Under the pieces are notes generated by a model, which did not search any database, was not told the origin of the DNA, and was given only the letters and a program-made list of their open reading frames with translations. A program made the position numbers and the translations under genes. Shown in pieces: positions 5,556 through 45,115 of a stretch of 64,000 nucleotides of DNA. This DNA comes from Nocardia tengchongensis (lineage in GTDB: Bacteria > Actinomycetota > Actinomycetes > Mycobacteriales > Mycobacteriaceae): contig NZ_CP074371.1 in assembly GCF_018362975.1 (NCBI RefSeq), positions 6,014,001 to 6,078,000 on the forward strand. The letters run 5' to 3'. The first letter of the stretch is position 1, and every line of letters starts with the position of its first letter.

Positions 5556-6353
5556 ATGACGGAACCGGTGCTGAATGTCGACGACGTGACGGTGGTGCGG
5601 AGCGGAAACCCCATCCTGCAAGGGGTTTCGCTCACCGTCCGGGCCGGTGAGCACTGGGCGCTGCTCGGCCCGAACGGCGCGGGCAAGACCACGCTGCTGC
5701 GGATGCTCGGCGCATTCGAGCATCCGACCCGGGGAACTGTGGAAGTGCTCGGGCGGCGACTGGGCCGCGTCGACATGCGCGCATTGCGGGCGGGGATCGG
5801 CCATGTCGACCCGCGCCACGTCCCCAGCGGCGACCTCACGGTCCGCGAAGTCGTGCTCACCGGCGCGACAAACACCGCGGCCCTGATCCCCCGCCGGCAG
5901 CCCTCCCCCGCCGAGCTGGCCGAGGCGGACCGCCTGATCGATCTGCTGGGCCTGTCCCACCGCCGCGACGCCGACTGGCAGATCCTGTCCCAGGGGCAGC
6001 GCGGCCGCACCCTCATCGCCCGCGCCCTGATGCCCAGCCCGCGCCTGCTGCTGCTCGACGAACCGGCGACCGGCCTGGATCTGGCCGGGCGAGAACAACT
6101 TCTGGAGCGCGTGGACCTGCTCCAGCGCAGCCACCCCGAGCTGGCGTCGGTCCTGGTCACCCATCATCTGGAGGAGCTGCCGCCCGGCACCACCCACGCC
6201 ATGCTGCTGAGCAACGGTCGCACCGTCGCGGCCGGGCCGGTCGAAAGCGTGCTCACCACCGACCACATCAGCGCTTGCTTCGATCATCCCGTGCGCATCC
6301 TGCGCGACGAGGGGCGGTGGAGCGTGCGGCCCGCCCAATCCCAGCCCGCCTGA
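5556..6353 (+). CDS. ABC transporter ATP-binding protein (stand-alone)
   Basis: A 265-residue ATPase with all nucleotide-binding motifs: Walker A GPNGAGKTT (about residue 41), signature LSQGQRGR, Walker B LLLLDEP, and the H-loop His in VLVTHHLEE. No permease gene is adjacent, so it either works with a distant partner or has a non-transport role. The closest general resemblance is to the ModF/YlmA-like iron or molybdate-type ATPases found alone in Mycobacteriales; that is inference from composition and length. Confidence 0.88.
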   Translation: MTEPVLNVDDVTVVRSGNPILQGVSLTVRAGEHWALLGPNGAGKTTLLRMLGAFEHPTRGTVEVLGRRLGRVDMRALRAGIGHVDPRHVPSGDLTVREVVLTGATNTAALIPRRQPSPAELAEADRLIDLLGLSHRRDADWQILSQGQRGRTLIARALMPSPRLLLLDEPATGLDLAGREQLLERVDLLQRSHPELASVLVTHHLEELPPGTTHAMLLSNGRTVAAGPVESVLTTDHISACFDHPVRILRDEGRWSVRPAQSQPA

Positions 6354-34513: not shown

Positions 34514-35365
34514 TCAGTTCCACACGTTGGTGATCTCCGCCGCGGGGTTCAGGTGGGCCAGACCGTAGGCGCTCTCGACGGTGCTGAGCACGTTGTAGTG
34601 GTTGATCTGGTTGGAGAAGCTGCCGACCTGGGTGTGCGCGCCGACGAAGGTGGTGAAGATGTGGTTGGACGAGCCGCCGTTGTCCTCGTCGAAGGTGACG
34701 ATGAGCAGGCTGTTGTGGGTCTTGGCCCACTGCGCGTAGGCGTCCATGTTGTTCTTCAGCCAGTTGTCACCGGTTTTGATCGAGCAGTCGTGCATGTCAT
34801 TGCACAGGTCGGGCGCCACGTACGAAACCGTGGGCAGGGTCGCGTAGTTCGCCGAGGTCGGGAACGTGCTGAAGCGGACGTTGCTGGTCGCGGGCACGTT
34901 GCTGAAGAACGGCGCGGCATTGTGCTTGCGCGCGTAAGTGCCGCTGGTGCAGCCGGTGTAGCCGTCCGACGGCATGGCCTCCGAGTAGCTCTTGAAGGTC
35001 TTGCTCGCGGTGATCAGCTGGTTGGCGATGTTGTTGCCGCTGAAGGTGTGCGGGCAGCTGTCGTCGGTGATGCCCTGGGTGGACCCGGAGAACATCGCCA
35101 GGTAGTTCGGCTCGCTCGGGTGGGTGACGCCGAACGACTGGGTGAACTTCGCGCCCTGACCGGCCAGGCTGTTGAAGTAGGGGGCGCTGGAGCTGCCGTT
35201 GATCTGCGAGTAGGCATGGTTCTCGAACATCACGACCACGATGTGGTCGAACGCCGGAACGACCGCCGCCGCCTGCGCGTGGGACGAGACTGCCACCGCG
35301 GACGTCGCCATACCGATGAACGCTGCGGCCGCCATGACGACGGGAGCGATGCGCTTCCTGAACAC
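34514..35365 (-). CDS. Secreted phosphoesterase (acid-phosphatase/phospholipase C-like)
   Basis: A 283-residue PF04185-type phosphoesterase. The signal peptide (VVMAAAAFIGMATSAVAVSS) has an AxA-type cleavage region. The metal and nucleophile motifs are IVVVMFENHAYSQ, THPSEPNYLAMFSGS, and LIVTFDEDNGGSSNHIF with the Asp/Glu ligands. The GTG at 35365 has AGGAGG 6 bp upstream. It acts outside the cell, probably releasing phosphate from phosphomonoesters or phospholipids. It is divergent from the J-domain cassette. Confidence 0.9.
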   Translation of the reverse strand: MFRKRIAPVVMAAAAFIGMATSAVAVSSHAQAAAVVPAFDHIVVVMFENHAYSQINGSSSAPYFNSLAGQGAKFTQSFGVTHPSEPNYLAMFSGSTQGITDDSCPHTFSGNNIANQLITASKTFKSYSEAMPSDGYTGCTSGTYARKHNAAPFFSNVPATSNVRFSTFPTSANYATLPTVSYVAPDLCNDMHDCSIKTGDNWLKNNMDAYAQWAKTHNSLLIVTFDEDNGGSSNHIFTTFVGAHTQVGSFSNQINHYNVLSTVESAYGLAHLNPAAEITNVWN

Positions 35366-35555
35366 GAATCCTCCTGAAGGAGTTGAACTCAACCCCGGCA
35401 GCACCGCCAGGGCCGCGTCATCGTAAGAACCGACTCGCGCATTTCCGACAAATGCTGGGAGACAACCGATGTGCGGTAGGTGAACAAACCGGCGCGACGA
35501 CGGCCCGGCTTTTTGTCGATTCCACAAGAACTTGGCCAAAACACTGGCGCCGATC

Positions 35556-35578
35556 GTTTTAGTCATCTAGCCTAAAAC
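35556..35578. promoter_or_regulatory. Candidate operator before the J/VWA/PurA/NrtR cassette
   Basis: GTTTTAG (35556-35562) and CTAAAAC (35572-35578) are a perfect inverted repeat with a 9-bp spacer, one base before the ATG at 35580. The total span of 23 bp is close to the size of known NrtR sites, and a NrtR-like protein is encoded in the same cassette; the link is inference. Confidence 0.6.
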
Positions 35579-35579
35579 C

Positions 35580-36599
35580 ATGACCACAGCGCGAGAGACC
35601 GCGGAGACCATCCGGGCGGCGCGGCGGCCCGAGGATCTCTTCGGTTCCGCCGCAACCGATTCCGCCGGCCGGCAGGCCGCCCGGCGCCGATACCACCGGA
35701 TGGCCGCCAGCGTCCACCCCGACCGGGTCGAGGCCGTCGACACGGCCGTCGCGAGCGCGGCATTCGCCCGGCTGTCGGAGCTGTACCAGCGCTGGCTGGA
35801 TATCGACGAGGCCGCCCTCGAGGTGACCGGCGCCCACGGGCGGTACCCCGTCGGGGCGCTGCACGCCGCCGGATCCATCGCCGACGTGTACCGCTCCGGA
35901 TCCGATCGGGTGGTGAAGATCCCGCGCCGCGCGGCCGCCAACCGGCTGCTCGCCGGTGAGCGAAACGCCTTGCGGGACATCGCGACCGTGGCCGGCGAGC
36001 ACCAGTGGCTGCGGCCCTACTTCCCCGAACTCGTCGACACCGTCGACCATCTCGACTCGGGCACCGGGGAACACCGCACGGTCAATGTGCTGGCCGGCCT
36101 GATCGGCGGATTCGTGACGATGGACCAGGTCCGCGCCGCCTACCCCGATGGGCTCGACCCGCGCGATTACGCGTGGATGCACCGGCGGCTGCTGCGCTGC
36201 CTCGCCGGAGCGCAACTCGCCGGCTGGGTGCACACCGCGATCAACCCCGCCAACGTGCTGGTACATCCACGACTGCACGGAATCGTGCTGGTGGGCTGGT
36301 CTTTCGCGACCCGCCCGGGCAACCCGGCGGCGGCGACGCTGAAGTCGCTGGACTATCCGCCCGAGATCCGCGACGCCGTCTCCCCCGCCACCGACATCCA
36401 CCTCGCGCATCGCCTCATGCTCACCATGCTCGGCGACCGCGCACCCGCCCCGATGCGTGCCTACGCCACCGGGTGCCTGCAAGCCGATCCCGGACTGCGG
36501 CCCGACGCCGCGGACCTGCTCGGCGAATTCGACGATCTGCTCGACCGGCTCTACGGGAAGCGCCGCTTCCGGCCCTTCGAGCTCACGAAAGGTAAGTGA
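35580..36599 (+). CDS. J-domain / pseudokinase fusion protein
   Basis: A 339-residue protein of two parts. Residues about 10-75 are J-like (RYHRMAASVHPDRVEAVDT), with HPD at 46-48. Residues about 90-330 follow the protein-kinase fold: GSIADVYR glycine-rich-like loop, VVKIP with Lys113, helix-C Glu127, and the catalytic-loop equivalent VHTAINPANVL (218-227). There HxD reads HTA, so the catalytic Asp is gone, and the DFG position reads VGW. It is therefore a probable pseudokinase with a chaperone-recruiting domain. It is first in a four-gene unit; the stop lies 5 bp before the VWA start. Confidence 0.8.
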   Translation: MTTARETAETIRAARRPEDLFGSAATDSAGRQAARRRYHRMAASVHPDRVEAVDTAVASAAFARLSELYQRWLDIDEAALEVTGAHGRYPVGALHAAGSIADVYRSGSDRVVKIPRRAAANRLLAGERNALRDIATVAGEHQWLRPYFPELVDTVDHLDSGTGEHRTVNVLAGLIGGFVTMDQVRAAYPDGLDPRDYAWMHRRLLRCLAGAQLAGWVHTAINPANVLVHPRLHGIVLVGWSFATRPGNPAAATLKSLDYPPEIRDAVSPATDIHLAHRLMLTMLGDRAPAPMRAYATGCLQADPGLRPDAADLLGEFDDLLDRLYGKRRFRPFELTKGK

Positions 36600-36604
36600 T
36601 CACC

Positions 36605-37584
36605 ATGGGTTACGGAAGCTGGGACGACAGCGCCTACGACGCGGCGCGGACCTTCCGCGCGGCCAAGGGACTCGACGACTTCGGTTACACCGCCGACATG
36701 CGCTCCACGCCGTGGGAGCAGTGGAAGGCGCACCCCACCCTGGATCCGTTCGGGGTCGGCATGCGGGAATCGCGCGACTCCGACGACCACGGCAACTCGC
36801 TGCCCATCGCGGTGCTCTTCGACGTCACCGGATCCATGGGCCGGGTGCCGCGGGTGATGCAGGAGAAGCTGGCCAAACTGCACGGACTGTTGCAGCGCAA
36901 GGGATATGCCGACGATCCGCAGATCCTGTTCGGGGCCATCGGCGACGCCGACAGCGACCGGGTGCCGCTGCAGGTCGGGCAGTTCGAATCCGACAACCGC
37001 ATGGACGAACAGCTGCGACTGATCCTGCTCGAAGGCGGCGGTGGCGGCAGAAGTCCGAAAGCTATGAACTGGCCGCGTATTTCATCGCCCGCCACACCGC
37101 CACCGACGCGTGGGACAAGCGCGGCCGCAAGGGCTACCTGTTCATCGTCGGCGACGAGCTGAACAAGAAGCGCCTGCCCGCGCGGCACATCCAGTCCGTC
37201 ATCGGCGACGACGTGCGCAGCGACATCGCGGTCGACTCGATCTACCGCGAGCTGGCCGACCGCTGGCACGTGCACTACATCCTGCCCAATCAGTCCAGCT
37301 ACTACCGGGATCCGGAGATCGCCGAACACTGGCAGGCGCTGCTGGGCGAGCGGTTCCTGCGGCTCGACGATCCGGCCGCGGTGTGCGAACTCATCGCGCT
37401 GACCATCGGCATCGGTGAGGACCGCGTCGATCTCGGGGCCGGACTGGCCGATCTGCGCGACATCGGATCGGCGGGCGAGGCCGACGCGGTGGGCAAGGCC
37501 CTCGCTCCCCTGGGCGCGACCCGCCGCGGCGCCAGCGCCGGGGCGCTGCCCGCCACCACCGGCGTCGACGACGTCGACCTCTGA
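36605..37584 (+). CDS. VWA-domain (MIDAS) protein, one frameshift
   Basis: A VWA protein of about 326 residues. The metal-ion-dependent adhesion motif DxTxS is AVLFDVTGSMGR (Asp73-x-Thr75-Gly-Ser77). The fold continues through ILFGAIGDADSDRVPLQVGQ, the restored GGGGQKSESYELAAYFIARH and YLFIVGDELNKKRLPARHIQ. One base is missing near 37049 in a GGC run. There is no membrane segment. VWA proteins paired with kinases or AAA partners organise assembly in stress and conflict systems. The start is ATG 36605 (a GTG at 36596 overlaps the previous stop). Confidence 0.82.
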
Positions 37585-37613
37585 ACCGGGACCGACACAG
37601 GAAGGGACACAAC

Positions 37614-38867
37614 ATGTTCGGCGACCGTCACCTGATCGTGGTGGACCTCGGCTTCGGCGACGCCGGCAAGGGGGCCACTGTGGACTGGCTGTGCTCACCG
37701 CACGCCGGGCTCGACGTGGCCGCGGTGGTGCGGTTCAACGGCGGCGCCCAGGCCGCCCACAATGTGCTCGCCGACGGCCGCCACCACACCTTCCGGCAGT
37801 TCGGGTCCGGCACCCTGTCCGGGGTGCCGACCCTGCTGTCCCGGCACATGCTGGTCGAACCGCTGGCCCTGGCCGCCGAGGCCCGCGAACTCGCGGCCCT
37901 CGGGGTCGCCGACCCGCTGTCGCTGCTGTACGTCGACGAGCGGGCACTGCTCACCACGCCGATCCACGGGGCCGCCAACCGGTGCCGGGAGGATACGAGG
38001 GGTACCGCCCGGCACGGATCGTGCGGCATCGGCATCGGCGAGACCGCGAGCTACGCCCTCGACCACGACGCGCCCCGGGTCGCCGACTGCCGGCGGCCGG
38101 AAGTGTTGCGGCGCAAGCTGATCGCGCTGGAGGAGCACTACGCGCCGCTGCTCGCCGGCGGGCGGCACCGCTACGACCCGATCGACGACCTGGTCGGGGC
38201 CTACACCGCGTTCGCGCGAGCGGTGGCGATCCTGCCGGGTGAGCAGCTCGCGGGGTTCGCGCGCACCGGCCGGCTCGTCTTCGAGGGCGCGCAGGGCGTG
38301 CTGCTCGACGAATGGCGCGGCACCCACCCCTACACCACCTGGTCCACCGTCGAACCCCGGCACGCGCGAGACATGCTGGCGCGCATCGGGGCTCCCGGTT
38401 ACGTGCTCGGCGTGACCCGGGCCTACCTGACCCGGCACGGGGCCGGCCCGTTCCCGACCGAGGACCCCGCGCTCTCGATTCCCGAGCCGCACAACGGAAC
38501 CGGCGTGTATCAAGGGGCGTTCCGGCGCGGGCACCTCGATCCGCTGCTGCTGCGGTACGCGATCGAGGCCTGCGGCGGGATCGACGGGCTGGCCGTCAAC
38601 CACCTCGACGCGCTCGGCGACATCCGCACCGCCACCGGCTATCTCACCGCCGACGGCTGCGTCGACCGGCTCGACTGCGGGGTCTGGCAGGACCTCGGCC
38701 ACCAGCAGCGGCTCACCGAGCTGCTGGAGGCCGCCACCCCGGCGTACGCGGATCTGCCCGCCGACGTACCCGGCTACCTGGAAGCCGAACTCGGCGCGCC
38801 GGTGGTGCTGACCGCCTGCGGGCCGGACCGGGCCGATCGCACACTCCGGATCACCGCTCAGGCATGA
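37614..38867 (+). CDS. Divergent adenylosuccinate-synthetase-like enzyme (PurA paralogue)
   Basis: A 417-residue PurA-family protein. Visible are the GTP/IMP motif GFGDAGKGATVDWL (canonical GDEGKG; the catalytic Asp is kept), NGGAQAAHNVL with the His41 equivalent but the first His of the canonical NAGH loop lost, FEGAQGVLLDEWRGTHPYTT, and YVLGVTRAYLTRHGAGPFPT. The guanine-specificity region reads LAVNHLDALGDI. The pattern of kept and changed residues suggests a GTP-dependent ligase on a purine-type substrate other than the housekeeping reaction. It is third in the cassette. Confidence 0.82.
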   Translation: MFGDRHLIVVDLGFGDAGKGATVDWLCSPHAGLDVAAVVRFNGGAQAAHNVLADGRHHTFRQFGSGTLSGVPTLLSRHMLVEPLALAAEARELAALGVADPLSLLYVDERALLTTPIHGAANRCREDTRGTARHGSCGIGIGETASYALDHDAPRVADCRRPEVLRRKLIALEEHYAPLLAGGRHRYDPIDDLVGAYTAFARAVAILPGEQLAGFARTGRLVFEGAQGVLLDEWRGTHPYTTWSTVEPRHARDMLARIGAPGYVLGVTRAYLTRHGAGPFPTEDPALSIPEPHNGTGVYQGAFRRGHLDPLLLRYAIEACGGIDGLAVNHLDALGDIRTATGYLTADGCVDRLDCGVWQDLGHQQRLTELLEAATPAYADLPADVPGYLEAELGAPVVLTACGPDRADRTLRITAQA

Positions 38868-38877
38868 TTGTCCCCTT

Positions 38878-39501
38878 GTGGAGCAACAATCGGCGGTATC
38901 CATCGACGTGATCGCCCTGCGCTACGGGCCCGACGACCCCACCGCCACCCTCGGCATCGCCGCGCGGCGGTGGGAACCGTTCGCCGGCGCCCTCGCACTG
39001 CCTGGCGTACTGCTGGGACTGGGCGAACGGCTCGCCGAGGCCGCCACCCGCGCGGTCCACACCAAACTCGGGGTGCCCGCCGACGCCATCCTCGCCGTCG
39101 GCCAGGTCGCCACCTTCGACGAACCCAACCGCGACCCGCGCGGGCCGACCCTGTCCATCGCCATGTGGGCGGTCGTCGGACCGCACGAGAGCGACACCGC
39201 GACCTGGGTGCCCTTCGACGCGGTCCCGCACCTGGCCTTCGACCACAACCAGATCGTCGCGACCGCCCGCGACCGGCTGGCCGACATGCTGTGGAAGGAC
39301 CTGACCTTCACCCGCGCCCTCACCGGCGACGAGTTCACCGCCACCCGCGCGGTCGGTCTCACCACCGCCCTGCACGGCGCGAAACCCGATGCTGGCAACC
39401 TGAATCGGACCCTGGCCGCGCTGCCCGGCCTGTCCCGGACAGGCGAACGCGTCCGGGTGAAGGCCACCGGGCGGCCCGCGGCCGTCTGGTCCTTCGCGTG
39501 A
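38878..39501 (+). CDS. NrtR-like regulator: degenerate Nudix domain plus winged helix
   Basis: A 207-residue protein starting at GTG 38878, 10 bp after the PurA-like stop. The Nudix box region GERLAEAATRAVHTKLGV keeps Gly, Glu50, Arg58 and Gly65, but the three catalytic Glu positions are Ala59, Thr62 and Lys63, so hydrolysis is unlikely. The C-terminus (FTATRAVGLTTALHG, NLNRTLAALPGLSRTGERV, GRPAAVWSF) matches the winged helix of NrtR regulators. In that family the Nudix domain senses an ADP-ribose-like ligand. The likely role is sensing a purine metabolite and controlling the cassette. Confidence 0.8.
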   Translation: MEQQSAVSIDVIALRYGPDDPTATLGIAARRWEPFAGALALPGVLLGLGERLAEAATRAVHTKLGVPADAILAVGQVATFDEPNRDPRGPTLSIAMWAVVGPHESDTATWVPFDAVPHLAFDHNQIVATARDRLADMLWKDLTFTRALTGDEFTATRAVGLTTALHGAKPDAGNLNRTLAALPGLSRTGERVRVKATGRPAAVWSFA

Positions 39502-41160: not shown

Positions 41161-41703
41161 TCAGAGGTCCTTCAGGCAGAAGGTGGTCGGCTGCTCGGTC
41201 AGCGTGATGACCTTGTCGGCTTCCTCGCCGCACAGGTTCTCGTCCGACTGGCCGTCGATCCGGGTCAGCACCTGGAAACTCGCGTTGCTGGTACCGCATT
41301 CGGCGTACTGATAGCCGGTCATCATGCTCTCGTGATAGCAGGCGCCCGGCTGGAAATTCGGCGCCAGACACAGGTACGCCATCGAGGCGCCGTTGAGCGT
41401 CTCCTCGTAGGAGGTGTAGTCGGCGGCGCACTCGGCCTTGGCGCTGGAGTGCTTGGCCACCTTGTACACCGCCTTCGGGGAGGCGCAGTCCACCGGCTCG
41501 GTCTTGGAATTGATCATCGACCCCTCGATAACGTTGATGCAATCACCGACCTTCGAGCGTCCGGTATCGGACTTTCCCGCGTCCTTGAGGCTGTCCGCAC
41601 CCTTCTGGACTGCCGAGCAACCCGCCAGCACCAGTGCGAAAATCGCCACGGCCACCGGGATCAGCCGCCACCACCGCCGGGAACCCGCCGAACTCACCTG
41701 CAT
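41161..41703 (-). CDS. Secreted lipoprotein, LppU-like
   Basis: A 180-residue lipoprotein. A basic region, the hydrophobic core PVAVAIFALVLAGC with lipobox LAGC, then a short Ser/Lys linker and a Cys-rich domain (KVGDCINVIEG, EPVDCASPKAVYKV, and further Cys in CAADY, YLCLAP, GACYHE, ECGTS, CGEEAD, FCLKDL). Four disulfides are likely. The pattern VGDC...VDC matches the actinobacterial LppU/SCO3897 family. The role is unknown. The start is uncertain (41703 chosen; 41736 possible). Confidence 0.82.
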   Translation of the reverse strand: MQVSSAGSRRWWRLIPVAVAIFALVLAGCSAVQKGADSLKDAGKSDTGRSKVGDCINVIEGSMINSKTEPVDCASPKAVYKVAKHSSAKAECAADYTSYEETLNGASMAYLCLAPNFQPGACYHESMMTGYQYAECGTSNASFQVLTRIDGQSDENLCGEEADKVITLTEQPTTFCLKDL

Positions 41704-41866
41704 CGTTGCCACGAACCTCTCTTCACCGGTTGTCATTCGAACCTCGACAACCCAACCCGGACGGCGACCGGCGAGCATCCGTGGAACCACGGGATCGGCC
41801 CGGCATCGGCGCGAACCCGGCGCCGAGTTAGGCTCCGCTCGGGGCCGTTCGCTCGGAAAGGAGTGC

Positions 41867-44800
41867 GTGATCGAGCCATTCGTCGGCCGCGTTCACGAAC
41901 TCTCGACGCTGGACGCGACCTACTGCACGCCCGGCCGGCACCGCGTGTTCCTGGTCGAAGGTCCGGCGGGAATCGGAAAGTCCAGACTGCTGGCCGAATC
42001 CGTCCGGCATGGCCGCGCGGCGGGTCTGCGGGCGATCACGGTCGCGGCCACAGAATACGAGCGGTCCACGCCCCGCCAGGTGCTGCTGGATCTCGCCGAC
42101 CAACTCGACCACGACGCTGATGGCTATCGCTATGGCGACGGCGACGGCGATAGCGGCACCGATGGCGATGCCCACATGGTCGATCCCGGCGGCCGCACAC
42201 CGGATCACGGGATCGCGACGGCCGATACCCGGGAGTCCGCGCGGTGGCTGCGGCACCGGCTCGCAGGCACTCCCACGGTCCTGATCATCGATGACGCGCA
42301 CTGGGCCGACCCGGCGTCACTGCGGGTGCTGGCCGTGTTGATCCGGCAGTCGCCGATGCCCGCGACCGTGGTCCTCGCCTATCGGACCGGACAGTTTCCC
42401 ACCGAACTCGGTGCCGCCCTGCGAACCCCACGCGCCGACGTGACCCATCTGAGCGTGCCGCCGCTGTCCACGGACGAAGCGACCGCGCTGCTCCCGGACC
42501 TGACGCCCGCACACCGCGCCCGGCTCGTCGCCGCGGCCCACGGCAATCCGCTGTATCTGCAGGTCCTGGCCGAACTCACGCCCGCGGAACTGGATCAGGC
42601 GCTGCGCGACGATCCCGTCGACACCGGGTTCGGCCATGCCGCACTGGACCGCACCCTGCGCGCCGAACTCGCGCACCTGCCGCCCCGCGAACAACTCGTC
42701 GCCCAGGCTGCCGCGGTGTGCGGCGCGACCGCCGACACCGAACTGCTCGGCGCCACCGCCGAAGTCACCCGCACCGACCTCGACGCCGCGGTCGACGACC
42801 TGGCCCGGCGCGGCTGGCTCACCGTCACCGGCGGCACCGTCGCCTTCCGCCATCCCCTCATGCGCACCGCCGCCTACCGCCTCGCCGGCCCCGCCTGGCG
42901 CGCCGCCGCCCACGACCGCGCCGCCCGCTTCCTGCGCACCGTCGACGCCCCGGTCCTGGTCCGCGCCCGCCACCTCGAACACGCCTTCGGCAGCCGCGAC
43001 GACCTCGCCGCCACCGAATTGATCCGCGCCGCCGAACAAGCCCTCGCCACCGCCCCCGCCACCAGCGCCCGCTGGATCGAAGCCGCCATCCGCCTCACCC
43101 CCGACCCACGCCCATCCGGTGGCCTCGATGCGATCGCCGACTCGGGCTCGACCGCCGACCGGGACGCCGCCATGCGCCCGGGCTCGACCAACGTCACCGG
43201 TGCGACCATCTCCCCGGGCACCGATGCGGACGCGACGCGCGTGTTGCTCGGGCGGGCACTGCTGTTGTCCGGGTCCGCCGAGCGGGCGCGGGACGTGCTC
43301 GAACCGCTCCTGCCGCACGAAGATTCACACTCCTCCACGACCTCACCCCGAGCGAGTGCGAACGTCCCGCACGCCGAACCCGTACCGGCCGCGTCGGACG
43401 CTCCCGGATTGTCGGCGAGCAACGAGGCGGTGCTGCTGTACGCGCGATGTGAGCGGATTCTCGGCCGGATCGACAGTGCGCGGCGGCTGCTGGCGGGGGC
43501 GGTCGAGCGGCTGGATCCGGGCGAGAGTGGTTCGGTGCAGCTGGAACTGGCGATTCTGGAATCCCAGGACAATCGCGATCGGGAGGCGGAGGTGCGGATC
43601 CGGGCACTGTTCGCGTCGGGGGCCGTGCGGGATCCGGCGATTCGAGCGGCGGCATGCACGTTGCGCAGCATGGGGCAGCTCAACAGTCTGGACCTGCGCG
43701 CGGCGCGGGACGCGTATCGGATCGCCGAACGAGAATTCGCGCAGCTCAACGACACTCGGCTGCTCGACGGCGTGCACGCGGTGGCGGCGCTGGGCTGGAT
43801 GGCGTACTTCCTCGACGATCAACGCACCGGTCTCACCCACATCGAACGCGCCATCACCGTCTGCCACCGGCACGGCCGCAGCTTCGTGCTGCCGGAGCTG
43901 CACACCGTCCACGCCTACTCCCTCGCCAAGATCGGCCGCTACGACGACGCGCTCGCCGCCGCCGAGGACGCCCTGGAAACCGCACGGCTGTACGGATATC
44001 CGGGCATCGCGCCACTGGCCGGCGCGGCGAAGCTGCGAATCCTCCAGGACACCGCACCCGCCGCAGAGGTGCTGCGCTGGTGGCGCACCCTCGACACACT
44101 CCCCCGGCCCGCCATGCGATGGTGGCGCGCCACCGTCGACGCGGCCCTCGCCGAAATCGCCCGCGCGCTACCGCATCCGGCCCGGCCTCAGCCCACCGGC
44201 GCCACATTGCCCACTGCCGCCACAGCCACAGTGCCCGATGACACCACATCGGCCATGCTGCCCACCGCCCCCGAATCGGCAAGGCCGCCCACCGACATCA
44301 GGTCGGCAACGCAACCCACCGACAGCGAAACCGCAACGTTGCCCATCGACGCCACATCATCCGGTGTGCCGACCGGAGCTACGCCGACCGCCCGCGCCGG
44401 TGTCACTACCTCGCAGTCGATGCCGAACGCCGCCGGGCCGGTCACCGATACGTCCGTGCAGCCGGAGGCCATGGACGCGCAGTCGCGGGAACATCCGATG
44501 CGGGCCGCGGAGCTCGCGGTCGGAGCGCTGGCGTGCCTCGCCCACGGCGACCTCGAGACGGCAGGGGCACTGGTGGAGCGGGCGGGCGAGGTGGCCGAAC
44601 GGCTCGACCTACCCGGGCAGCGGGCCGCGGCGGCGCGGGCGCGGGCCGGATATCTGTGCGCACGAGGCGATCTCGAAGCGGCCGCCCAGGCGGCGGCAGC
44701 GGCGATCGCGCACTACGGTCAGGCCGGGATGCCCGTCTTTCGCGCCCAGGCCATGCTGGTGGCCGCCGAAATCGACGGGAAGCGAGGCGATTTCGCCACC

Positions 44801-45115
44801 GCGACCGCGCGAATCGCCTCCGCCCGAGAGGAATTCGCGGCGGCCGGTGCGCACGAGCTGCTCACCGCCGCCACCACCGCGCAGCGCAAGCTGGCGGGTC
44901 ATCGCAGTGTGAGTGGTGCGACCATATTGAGCGAGCGTGAACGCGAGGTCGCCGAGCTGGCGGCGCGGGGACTCACCAACAAGGACATCGCCGAAAAGCT
45001 GTTCCTGAGCCCGCGCACCGTGGAGGACCATCTGGGTCGCATCCTGCGCAAACTGGGGCTCACCGGTCGCGGCGGGATCGCGCACAAGCTCGCGGAATTG
45101 GACCGACCGGACTGA
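41867..45115 (+). CDS. Large LuxR-family ATPase regulator (LAL type)
   Basis: A 1082-residue STAND-type regulator. The start is GTG 41867 after GGAAAGGAG. The N-terminal ATPase has P-loop GPAGIGKS (32-39) and Walker B LIIDDAHW; a Gly/Asp loop (YGDGDGDSGTDGD) sits between. The middle has repetitive TPR-like helices. Residues about 770-850 are a Thr/Ala/Pro/Ser-rich linker with loose repeats. The last 65 residues are the LuxR HTH (LSEREREVAELAARGLTNKD, IAEKLFLSPRTVEDHLGRIL). The target and ligand are unknown. It stands alone, divergent from the lipoprotein gene. Confidence 0.93.
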   Translation: MIEPFVGRVHELSTLDATYCTPGRHRVFLVEGPAGIGKSRLLAESVRHGRAAGLRAITVAATEYERSTPRQVLLDLADQLDHDADGYRYGDGDGDSGTDGDAHMVDPGGRTPDHGIATADTRESARWLRHRLAGTPTVLIIDDAHWADPASLRVLAVLIRQSPMPATVVLAYRTGQFPTELGAALRTPRADVTHLSVPPLSTDEATALLPDLTPAHRARLVAAAHGNPLYLQVLAELTPAELDQALRDDPVDTGFGHAALDRTLRAELAHLPPREQLVAQAAAVCGATADTELLGATAEVTRTDLDAAVDDLARRGWLTVTGGTVAFRHPLMRTAAYRLAGPAWRAAAHDRAARFLRTVDAPVLVRARHLEHAFGSRDDLAATELIRAAEQALATAPATSARWIEAAIRLTPDPRPSGGLDAIADSGSTADRDAAMRPGSTNVTGATISPGTDADATRVLLGRALLLSGSAERARDVLEPLLPHEDSHSSTTSPRASANVPHAEPVPAASDAPGLSASNEAVLLYARCERILGRIDSARRLLAGAVERLDPGESGSVQLELAILESQDNRDREAEVRIRALFASGAVRDPAIRAAACTLRSMGQLNSLDLRAARDAYRIAEREFAQLNDTRLLDGVHAVAALGWMAYFLDDQRTGLTHIERAITVCHRHGRSFVLPELHTVHAYSLAKIGRYDDALAAAEDALETARLYGYPGIAPLAGAAKLRILQDTAPAAEVLRWWRTLDTLPRPAMRWWRATVDAALAEIARALPHPARPQPTGATLPTAATATVPDDTTSAMLPTAPESARPPTDIRSATQPTDSETATLPIDATSSGVPTGATPTARAGVTTSQSMPNAAGPVTDTSVQPEAMDAQSREHPMRAAELAVGALACLAHGDLETAGALVERAGEVAERLDLPGQRAAAARARAGYLCARGDLEAAAQAAAAAIAHYGQAGMPVFRAQAMLVAAEIDGKRGDFATATARIASAREEFAAAGAHELLTAATTAQRKLAGHRSVSGATILSEREREVAELAARGLTNKDIAEKLFLSPRTVEDHLGRILRKLGLTGRGGIAHKLAELDRPD

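What the first reader, a model, noticed from the sequence alone, without database searches (positions are those of the whole stretch)
35556..39501. Four-gene cassette: J-domain/pseudokinase, VWA, PurA paralogue, NrtR-like regulator
Four same-strand genes with gaps of 5, 29 and 10 bp. Seen: HPD motif plus a kinase fold with HTA instead of HxD; MIDAS DxTGS; PurA signature motifs with altered IMP/loop residues; a Nudix box without its catalytic Glu, plus a winged helix. A perfect inverted repeat sits at the first start codon. Known: VWA proteins pair with kinases or AAA partners in stress and conflict systems, PurZ-type PurA paralogues make modified purines in phages, and NrtR senses nucleotide-like ligands. 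Inference: a regulated purine-metabolite pathway with a chaperone-like assembly pair. I do not know of a described system with this exact set.
Basis: partly seen in the sequence, partly recalled or inferred. Interest (0 to 1): 0.88.

Follow-up and report, generated by a model that had tools for sequence, protein, structure and literature searches.

The report
Phage-and-bacteria shared PurA–VWA cassette
A small gene set, built around a repurposed purine-making enzyme and a dedicated partner protein, is shared by soil bacteria and large phages and seems undescribed, so it may make an unknown nucleotide product used in stress or phage–host conflict.

Summary
The cassette is real and is a conserved system. 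Its core is VWA + PurA-like. PurA-like accompanies VWA in 79 of 80 actinobacterial loci (the other is cut by a contig end) and 78 of 80 viral contigs. A J-domain pseudokinase is present in 49 and 45 of these. An NrtR-like regulator accompanies bacterial copies, and lies divergently in three proteobacterial plasmids. The three Bixzunavirus phages opened carry kinase–VWA–PurA in the same order.

The inverted repeat is a 23-bp operator, GTTTTAGT-N7-ACTAAAAC or GTTTGAGT-N7-ACTCAAAC. It is in 79 of 80 loci at the cassette start, with no copy elsewhere in 1.58 Mb, and matches the architecture of the characterised M. smegmatis NrtR site.

PurA-like is neither housekeeping PurA nor PurZ. It keeps Asp13/His41/Gln224 in 163 of 163 aligned, but its substrate pockets are rebuilt: T301Q, V273H and no R303 in 163 of 163.

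Correction: in this genome the VWA frame is broken by one base near 37,045; all 160 VWA genes of the searched loci are intact.

Product and role are unproven. I commit to a repressed, GTP-dependent nucleotide-ligase operon.

The parts
35556..35578 (.). Operator: 23-bp palindrome of GTTTTAGT-N7-ACTAAAAC type (here 1 mismatch), leaving one base before the first start codon
   Evidence: 79 of 80 loci, 0 elsewhere
35509..35531 (.). Possible second, degenerate copy of the operator 47 bp upstream (6 of 8 arm pairs)
   Evidence: a second weak site (up to 5 mismatches) in 21 of 80 loci, 18 of them at 47-48 bp
35580..36599 (+). JK: J-domain (about 35658-35816, HPD intact) fused to a protein-kinase-like domain without the catalytic Asp (pseudokinase)
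   Evidence: DnaJ, 16.3 bits, below cut-off; phrog_3043, 4e-24; pLDDT 93.1
36605..37162 (+). VWA protein, first part with the MIDAS-type DVTGS; frame broken near 37,045, so the last ~38 codons are out of frame
   Evidence: (phrog_2971, 1.3e-37)
37054..37584 (+). VWA protein, remaining part, in a different frame from its start
   Evidence: (phrog_2971, 5e-28)
37614..38867 (+). PurA-like enzyme of the adenylosuccinate synthetase fold, catalytic core kept, IMP-phosphate and aspartate pockets rebuilt
   Evidence: (PF00709, 5.2e-59)
38878..39501 (+). NrtR-like regulator: Nudix fold without catalytic Glu plus winged helix

Best explanation
A portable, self-repressed operon for a repurposed GTP-dependent ligase. 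SHOWN by sequence: VWA and PurA-like are the core pair. PurA-like keeps the phosphoryl-transfer residues of adenylosuccinate synthetase but has a different, conserved pocket where IMP's phosphate/ribose and aspartate bind. The operon start carries a dedicated NrtR-type operator, and a dead-Nudix NrtR-like gene is part of the operon (or divergent from it). INFERRED: the NrtR-like protein represses the operon and lets go when its Nudix pocket binds a nucleotide-like ligand (ADP-ribose or NAD most likely, by analogy with M. smegmatis NrtR). The enzyme then uses GTP to activate an oxo group on a purine-type substrate, and a nucleophile other than canonical aspartate displaces it, giving a modified purine nucleotide or nucleotide conjugate. 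VWA is its obligate partner, and the J-domain pseudokinase, where present, brings DnaK to assemble, activate or dismantle the VWA-PurA complex. Phages carry the same genes, nearly always without the repressor, and would make the product during infection.
Against: No substrate, product or ligand was tested. JK is absent beside VWA in 31 of 80 genome loci and 35 of 80 viral loci, and was not found by profile anywhere in the Vibrio phiKT1024 and Rhizobium TM39 records (the latter is titled 'partial genome'), so it is not essential to the unit. Only 2 of 80 viral loci have the regulator, and these two have an intact catalytic Nudix box; none of the viral loci has this operator, so the regulation is a host feature. 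Conserved Arg304 of the cassette family might still hold aspartate, so a non-aspartate nucleophile is not proven. No adenylosuccinate lyase gene is part of the set. The kinase part is not uniformly dead: 6 of 47 viral JK keep the HxD Asp and 17 of 47 an Asp at the DFG position, though none keeps both. The VWA frame is broken in this very genome.
Confidence: 0.5

Rival explanations
1. An auxiliary adenylosuccinate synthetase that simply boosts AMP supply (as a phage auxiliary metabolic gene, kept by hosts), with VWA/JK as passengers.
For: Clear AdSS fold and catalytic residues; that phages often carry nucleotide-metabolism genes is recalled.
Against: Aspartate/IMP residues replaced in 163 of 163; a separate clade from 25 housekeeping PurA; the own genome already has a housekeeping PurA; the near-absolute link to VWA is unexplained.
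Confidence: 0.12
2. A PurZ-type enzyme making 2-aminoadenine or another DNA base, i.e. a DNA-modification cassette.
For: RefSeq names Bixzunavirus proteins '2-aminooxy adenylosuccinate synthetase', the same string as phiVC8 PurZ; both are phage AdSS paralogues.
Against: Asp13 kept where phiVC8 PurZ has Ser; PurZ model only 2.6e-05, 23.6 bits against a cut-off of 300; none of the recurrent neighbour families listed looked like a polymerase, DatZ or MazZ (my reading of the sequences, no family search); bacterial hosts carry it too.
Confidence: 0.08
3. A NAD/ADP-ribose stress or counter-defence module: induced by ADP-ribose released when NADase defences act, and carried by phages to survive them.
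For: NrtR answers to ADP-ribose in M. smegmatis (PMC6800001 passages); shared by phages and hosts; the Vibrio phage locus has a NADAR-family gene and the Rhizobium phage locus an NMN adenylyltransferase/Nudix and a phosphoribosyltransferase-like gene within about 5 kb.
Against: Those neighbours did not recur in at least 5 of the 85 viral loci clustered; another NrtR-family member senses L-arabinose (PMC4666351 passages); no clear defence enrichment seen.
Confidence: 0.25
4. A protein-modifying or signalling triad in the manner of TerY-P, with VWA and kinase as actors and PurA-like as nucleotide supplier.
For: VWA plus kinase-like protein side by side; weak kinase hits to MkoA, Mad6 and PD-T4-6; some viral kinase parts keep one catalytic Asp.
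Against: None of 49 bacterial and 47 viral kinase parts has both catalytic Asp; no TerY-P model among the hits of the five pieces (what TerY-P consists of is recalled).
Confidence: 0.05

Closest known systems
NrtR / NdnR regulators of NAD metabolism (e.g. M. smegmatis NrtR, MSMEG_3198)
   Same: Nudix fold with degenerate catalytic box plus winged helix; autoregulatory arrangement; 23-bp palindrome with 8-7-8 arms beginning GTTTT
   Different: Target is the JK-VWA-PurA operon, not the nad genes; inner arm bases differ (AGT or GAGT against CGA); ligand unknown
Adenylosuccinate synthetase PurA
   Same: Fold, P-loop, Asp13, Lys16, His41, Gln224, Asp333 (162 of 163)
   Different: Arg303 absent, Thr301 to Gln, Val273 to His, Asn38 to Gln (161 of 163), Thr129 mostly Cys (152), Arg143 not kept; separate clade; linked to VWA
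Phage PurZ (phiVC8, S-2L)
   Same: AdSS paralogue carried by phages
   Different: phiVC8 PurZ has Ser for Asp13, the cassette keeps Asp; a host version exists; no Z-cluster-like neighbours noticed
VWA with AAA/chaperone partners (RavA-ViaA type) and TerY-P triads
   Same: Intracellular VWA protein beside a protein with chaperone- or kinase-type domains
   Different: Partner is a J-domain pseudokinase, and the linked enzyme is a PurA-like ligase (comparison recalled; RavA-ViaA seen only as an abstract start in a search listing)

Membership tests
Housekeeping adenylosuccinate synthetase (PurA) | Groups with housekeeping PurA in a tree | tested here: not met
   58 cassette rows and 25 housekeeping rows on two sides of a branch, SH-aLRT 100 (quick search without bootstrap, housekeeping rows all from Actinomycetota)
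Housekeeping adenylosuccinate synthetase (PurA) | Scores above the curated equivalog cut-off (TIGR00184, 395.55 bits) | tested here: not met
   117.8 bits; own housekeeping copy 548.6
AdSS fold superfamily (chemistry) | Catalytic Asp13, His41, Lys16 and Gln224 | tested here: met
   163 of 163 each (10 of 172 loci rows, mostly truncated or low-scoring, were left out)
PurA substrate set (IMP + aspartate) | Arg303/Thr301 of the aspartate and ribose site | tested here: not met
   R303 gap and T301Q in 163 of 163; role of R303 from a PMC8342488 passage, of Thr301 recalled
PurZ | Ser in place of Asp13 | tested here: not met
   Asp 163 of 163; phiVC8 PurZ has Ser; Ser as PurZ-specific from a PMC8342488 passage
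PurZ | Curated model NF038379 above cut-off | tested here: not met
   23.6 bits against 300
NrtR family | Nudix fold plus NrtR winged helix | tested here: met
   Allorhizobium member 57.1 bits (cut-off 27) to NrtR_WHD and a viral one 83.8; window protein itself only 15.7 bits, joined to the Allorhizobium one by profile, 6.4e-21
NrtR family | Palindromic operator at its own operon | tested here: met
   79 of 80 loci; binding itself not tested
NrtR family (NAD regulators) | Responds to ADP-ribose or NAD | not testable with these tools
   Needs a binding assay
VWA domain | VWA fold with MIDAS motif | tested here: met
J-domain co-chaperone | HPD motif in a J fold | tested here: met
   49 of 49 bacterial, 43 of 47 viral; J-domain chains found by profile
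Active protein kinase | Both catalytic Asp (HxD and DFG) | tested here: not met
   HxD Asp in 0 of 49 bacterial and 6 of 47 viral, DFG-position Asp in 0 of 49 and 17 of 47, both in none; the beta-3 Lys is kept in 49 of 49 and 21 of 47
TerY-P and other catalogued defence systems | Specific PADLOC model hit | tested here: not met
   Only weak kinase hits for JK; 1 of 54 VWA weakly to HerA models

The most novel reading that the evidence does not exclude
An undescribed nucleotide-chemistry system shared by phages and bacteria. A new branch of the adenylosuccinate synthetase fold, paired with a VWA protein and often a DnaK-recruiting pseudokinase, makes a so far unknown purine conjugate. Actinobacteria appear to have taken the cassette from phages, since their clade lies inside the viral diversity, and put it under an NrtR sensor of ADP-ribose-like signals.
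Probability: 0.45. Interest if true: 0.9.

Novelty: categorically new. Interest (0 to 1): 0.8.

Why it matters
The gene pair occurs in 190 mycobacteriophage records (some phages are listed twice; those listed are about 152-161 kb, and the three opened are Bixzunavirus), in Rhizobium and Vibrio phages, and in Nocardia, Rhodococcus and Pseudonocardiaceae. It still carries names such as 'hypothetical protein' or a name shared with PurZ. The rebuilt active site makes a clear prediction of new chemistry, and the operator makes the inducing signal directly testable. If the ligand is ADP-ribose, it would tie this system to NAD-depletion defences.

Tried and rejected
PurZ/2-aminoadenine reading: rejected on Asp13 and model scores. 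Housekeeping PurA: rejected by tree and cut-offs. Defence island: 6 flanking window proteins gave one hit, to a CARF3 model through the luxR-type HTH at the end of a regulator. Of 128 flanking ORFs picked by script in 10 of the 80 genome loci I scanned 120. The listed hits are generic UvrD-type helicase, RTasHel, mad3 (4 ORFs) and AriA (3 ORFs) models, with 25 of 39 families shown; I read this as no clear enrichment, not as proof. Conserved phage neighbours: besides the core, TROVE-like (8 loci) and DUF2828-like (5) genes, a membrane-protein family (7) and several families of 5 loci recurred among the 85 viral loci clustered; many of the 5-locus families come from the near-identical Bixzunavirus records (TROVE and DUF2828 are recalled from the sequences, though a TROVE gene is annotated in the Vibrio phage). 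Spread: VWA found in only 2 of 396 evenly drawn phylum genomes, the own genome included, so it is patchy. Sequence relatives of VWA among solved structures: none at E up to 1. Literature: no described system with this set in the seven searches aimed at it (listings and abstract starts seen, plus passages of PMC7159879); the library holds only openly licensed papers, so a subscription paper could have been missed. Rodionov 2008 on NrtR was not held.

Results that weaken my reading: JK is missing in 31 of 80 genome and 35 of 80 viral loci; L119 and L130 have VWA without PurA-like although about 3 kb follow; Rhodovulum plasmid L213 has VWA, JK and the Nudix gene but no PurA-like hit, and Variovorax L210 has no Nudix hit; 6 of 47 viral kinase parts keep the HxD Asp; the loci are related and were picked by similarity to VWA, so the counts are not independent trials. 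An earlier operator pattern (variable spacer, one half-site type, window set by the open frame) found 66 of 80, with 189 overlapping matches in all loci together. Rows left out: 10 of 172 PurA-like (6 truncated or short, L168 with the insert, L016, L169 and L176 low-scoring) and 10 of 105 JK (short or low-scoring) before the residue counts; L070 is the one genome locus without the operator, where the arms look degenerate.
Full report
WHAT IS THERE. The window lies in an 8.0-Mb single-contig genome whose nearest named relatives are Nocardia. One correction: the VWA gene is split by a one-base frame change near 37,045. The ORF beginning at 36605 ends at 37162, and the family's C-terminal half continues in another frame to 37584. 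All 160 VWA genes in the 80 genome and 80 viral loci are single frames (at least 282 aa), as are those of the other nine family genomes. Sequencing error and real loss cannot be separated here.

THE SET IS A SYSTEM. PurA-like at E up to 1e-60 occurs in 10 of 151 family genomes (4 of 31 genera). All 10 have VWA and the NrtR-like gene around it, and JK was seen in 8 of these 10 short loci. Of these 80, PurA-like is present in 79, the NrtR-like gene in 77 and JK in 49. The missing PurA-like (L053) and NrtR-like genes (L034, L053, L066) are at contig ends; JK is truly absent upstream in the 8 JK-less loci I inspected. IMG/VR gave 221 relatives, best 80 kept: PurA-like in 78 of 80, JK in 45 of 80 (at E up to 1e-5), NrtR-like in 2 of 80. 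Among 50,697 annotated phage records, tblastn found JK in 190, VWA in 207 and PurA-like in 227 (GenBank and RefSeq copies of one phage count apart). The Mycobacterium/Mycolicibacterium ones number 190 in each search; the three I opened are Bixzunavirus with order kinase, VWA, PurA, with a small ORF before PurA in two of them. 10 Rhizobium and 6 Vibrio phage records have VWA and PurA-like hits, and the one of each that I opened carries the pair side by side (a 60-aa ORF between them in the Vibrio phage); neither record has JK by profile. Some of the remaining PurA hits are ordinary PurA of bacterial contigs (e.g. Salmonella). Plasmids: 21 of 72,556 records have VWA, 11 of them Rhodococcus. Of the six opened, Rhodococcus opacus has the full order JK-VWA-PurA-NrtR; Allorhizobium, Acetobacter and Rhizobium carry JK-VWA-PurA with the Nudix regulator divergent; Variovorax lacks the regulator; Rhodovulum lacks PurA-like. 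A changed arrangement with the same members is strong evidence for a functional unit.

THE OPERATOR. Counting GTTTTAGT-N7-ACTAAAAC or GTTTGAGT-N7-ACTCAAAC with at most 2 mismatches, 79 of 80 genome loci have it between -150 and +60 of the first start codon, and none of the 1,578,913 bases has it elsewhere. It sits before JK (49 loci) or, where JK is missing, before VWA (30 of 31). In 24 of 79 both arms have changed together to the GAGT/ACTC type, and in 12 the left arm alone differs. An earlier pattern search with one half-site type found 66 of 80. The motif was defined on the same related loci, so the count is not a test on independent data; the absence elsewhere is the informative part. The own genome has it once with at most 1 mismatch; one further place has 3, as many places as the reversed control finds. 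Viral and phage loci have none in 1,421,894 bases. The M. smegmatis NrtR site is GTTTTCGA-N7-TCGAAAAC (PMC6800001, passages), the same architecture. The actinobacterial NrtR-like proteins have Ala and Lys where an active Nudix box has Glu (positions 59 and 63, 87 of 87). NrtR-type regulators with degenerate Nudix boxes use the pocket to sense ligands (PMC4666351 and PMC6800001, passages).

THE ENZYME. In 163 cassette proteins (89 bacterial including the window, 74 viral; 10 of 172 rows left out) aligned with 25 housekeeping PurA (numbering of the own housekeeping copy, which matches E. coli by motif), Asp13, Lys16, His41, Glu221 and Gln224 are kept in all, Thr239 and Asp333 in 162. Thr301 is Gln, Val273 His, Lys267 Arg and Arg303 a gap in all; Asn38 is Gln in 161 and Thr129 Cys in 152; Arg143 is not kept; Lys331 is His in 138. 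Arg303 of E. coli contacts the ribose O2' and the aspartate (PMC8342488, passage); the other roles are recalled. So the phosphoryl-transfer chemistry is probably kept and the substrates changed. The cassette proteins form one side of a branch (SH-aLRT 100) against housekeeping PurA. The 18 actinobacterial rows are one clade (99) that lies, on forks of 81-89 support, inside the viral ones. This suggests acquisition from phages, although distant bacterial copies were not in the tree. phiVC8 PurZ has Ser at position 13. RefSeq's '2-aminooxy adenylosuccinate synthetase' for Bixzunavirus is the same name as on phiVC8 PurZ and is probably misleading.

MECHANISM AND ODDS (my judgement). Conserved functional unit: about 0.97. 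Repression of the operon by the NrtR-like protein at the 23-bp site: about 0.9. Non-canonical substrate(s) for PurA-like: about 0.8. VWA as physical partner of PurA-like: about 0.65. JK bringing DnaK to that complex: about 0.4. Ligand ADP-ribose- or NAD-like: about 0.4. Product a modified purine nucleotide: about 0.5. Phage counter-defence or host stress role: about 0.35, not shown.

NOVELTY. Every part has a known fold, but I found no description of the set in seven literature searches aimed at it in an open-licence library, and the phage and host genes I saw are annotated as hypothetical, kinase, Nudix, adenylosuccinate synthetase, or with a name shared with PurZ.

Noticed in passing
L003:6886-8664 and L017:5897-7711 (Bixzunavirus VWA genes): VWA carries an intein-like insertion after the conserved KGY, absent in phage Tonenili (L015): a presence/absence polymorphism among related phages.
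   Followed up: partly
L168:3400-5922: A viral PurA-like gene has a long insertion beginning with Cys and ending HN, directly after catalytic His41: an apparent intein in the active site.
   Followed up: partly
Bixzunavirus PurA records in 'phages': RefSeq product '2-aminooxy adenylosuccinate synthetase' is shared with phiVC8 PurZ, but the catalytic position differs; likely name transfer.
   Followed up: yes
L110:3143-3889 and L113:7559-8290: Two viral contigs have a Nudix-winged-helix protein with an intact catalytic Nudix box (REVEEETG) near VWA-PurA, and a JK placed after PurA; the L113 one lacks the J-domain.
   Followed up: partly
L211:9408-14870: Downstream of the Allorhizobium cassette lie an AAA (AAA_5), a DUF5682 and a DUF4132 gene, and a T6SS VgrG on the other side.
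   Followed up: no
L013 and other viral loci: TROVE-like genes lie within 8 kb of VWA-PurA in 8 of 85 viral loci; possible RNA-particle link.
   Followed up: no
L213:7001-8029: The Rhodovulum plasmid VWA protein is annotated 'TonB-dependent receptor', an evident misannotation.
   Followed up: no
L211:5907-5929 and L212:5749-5771, 5848-5870: The NUD-JK intergenic regions of the Allorhizobium and Acetobacter plasmids hold palindromes with TTAGAC/CTAA-type arms, possibly the regulator's sites there.
   Followed up: partly
window 34514-35566 (-) and 41438-45115 (+): Phosphoesterase-family gene upstream, and a large AAA/LuxR-type regulator downstream; of the five window flank genes tested only TetR (10), the zinc dehydrogenase (9) and the AAA/LuxR gene (3) recur among 80 genome loci.
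   Followed up: partly
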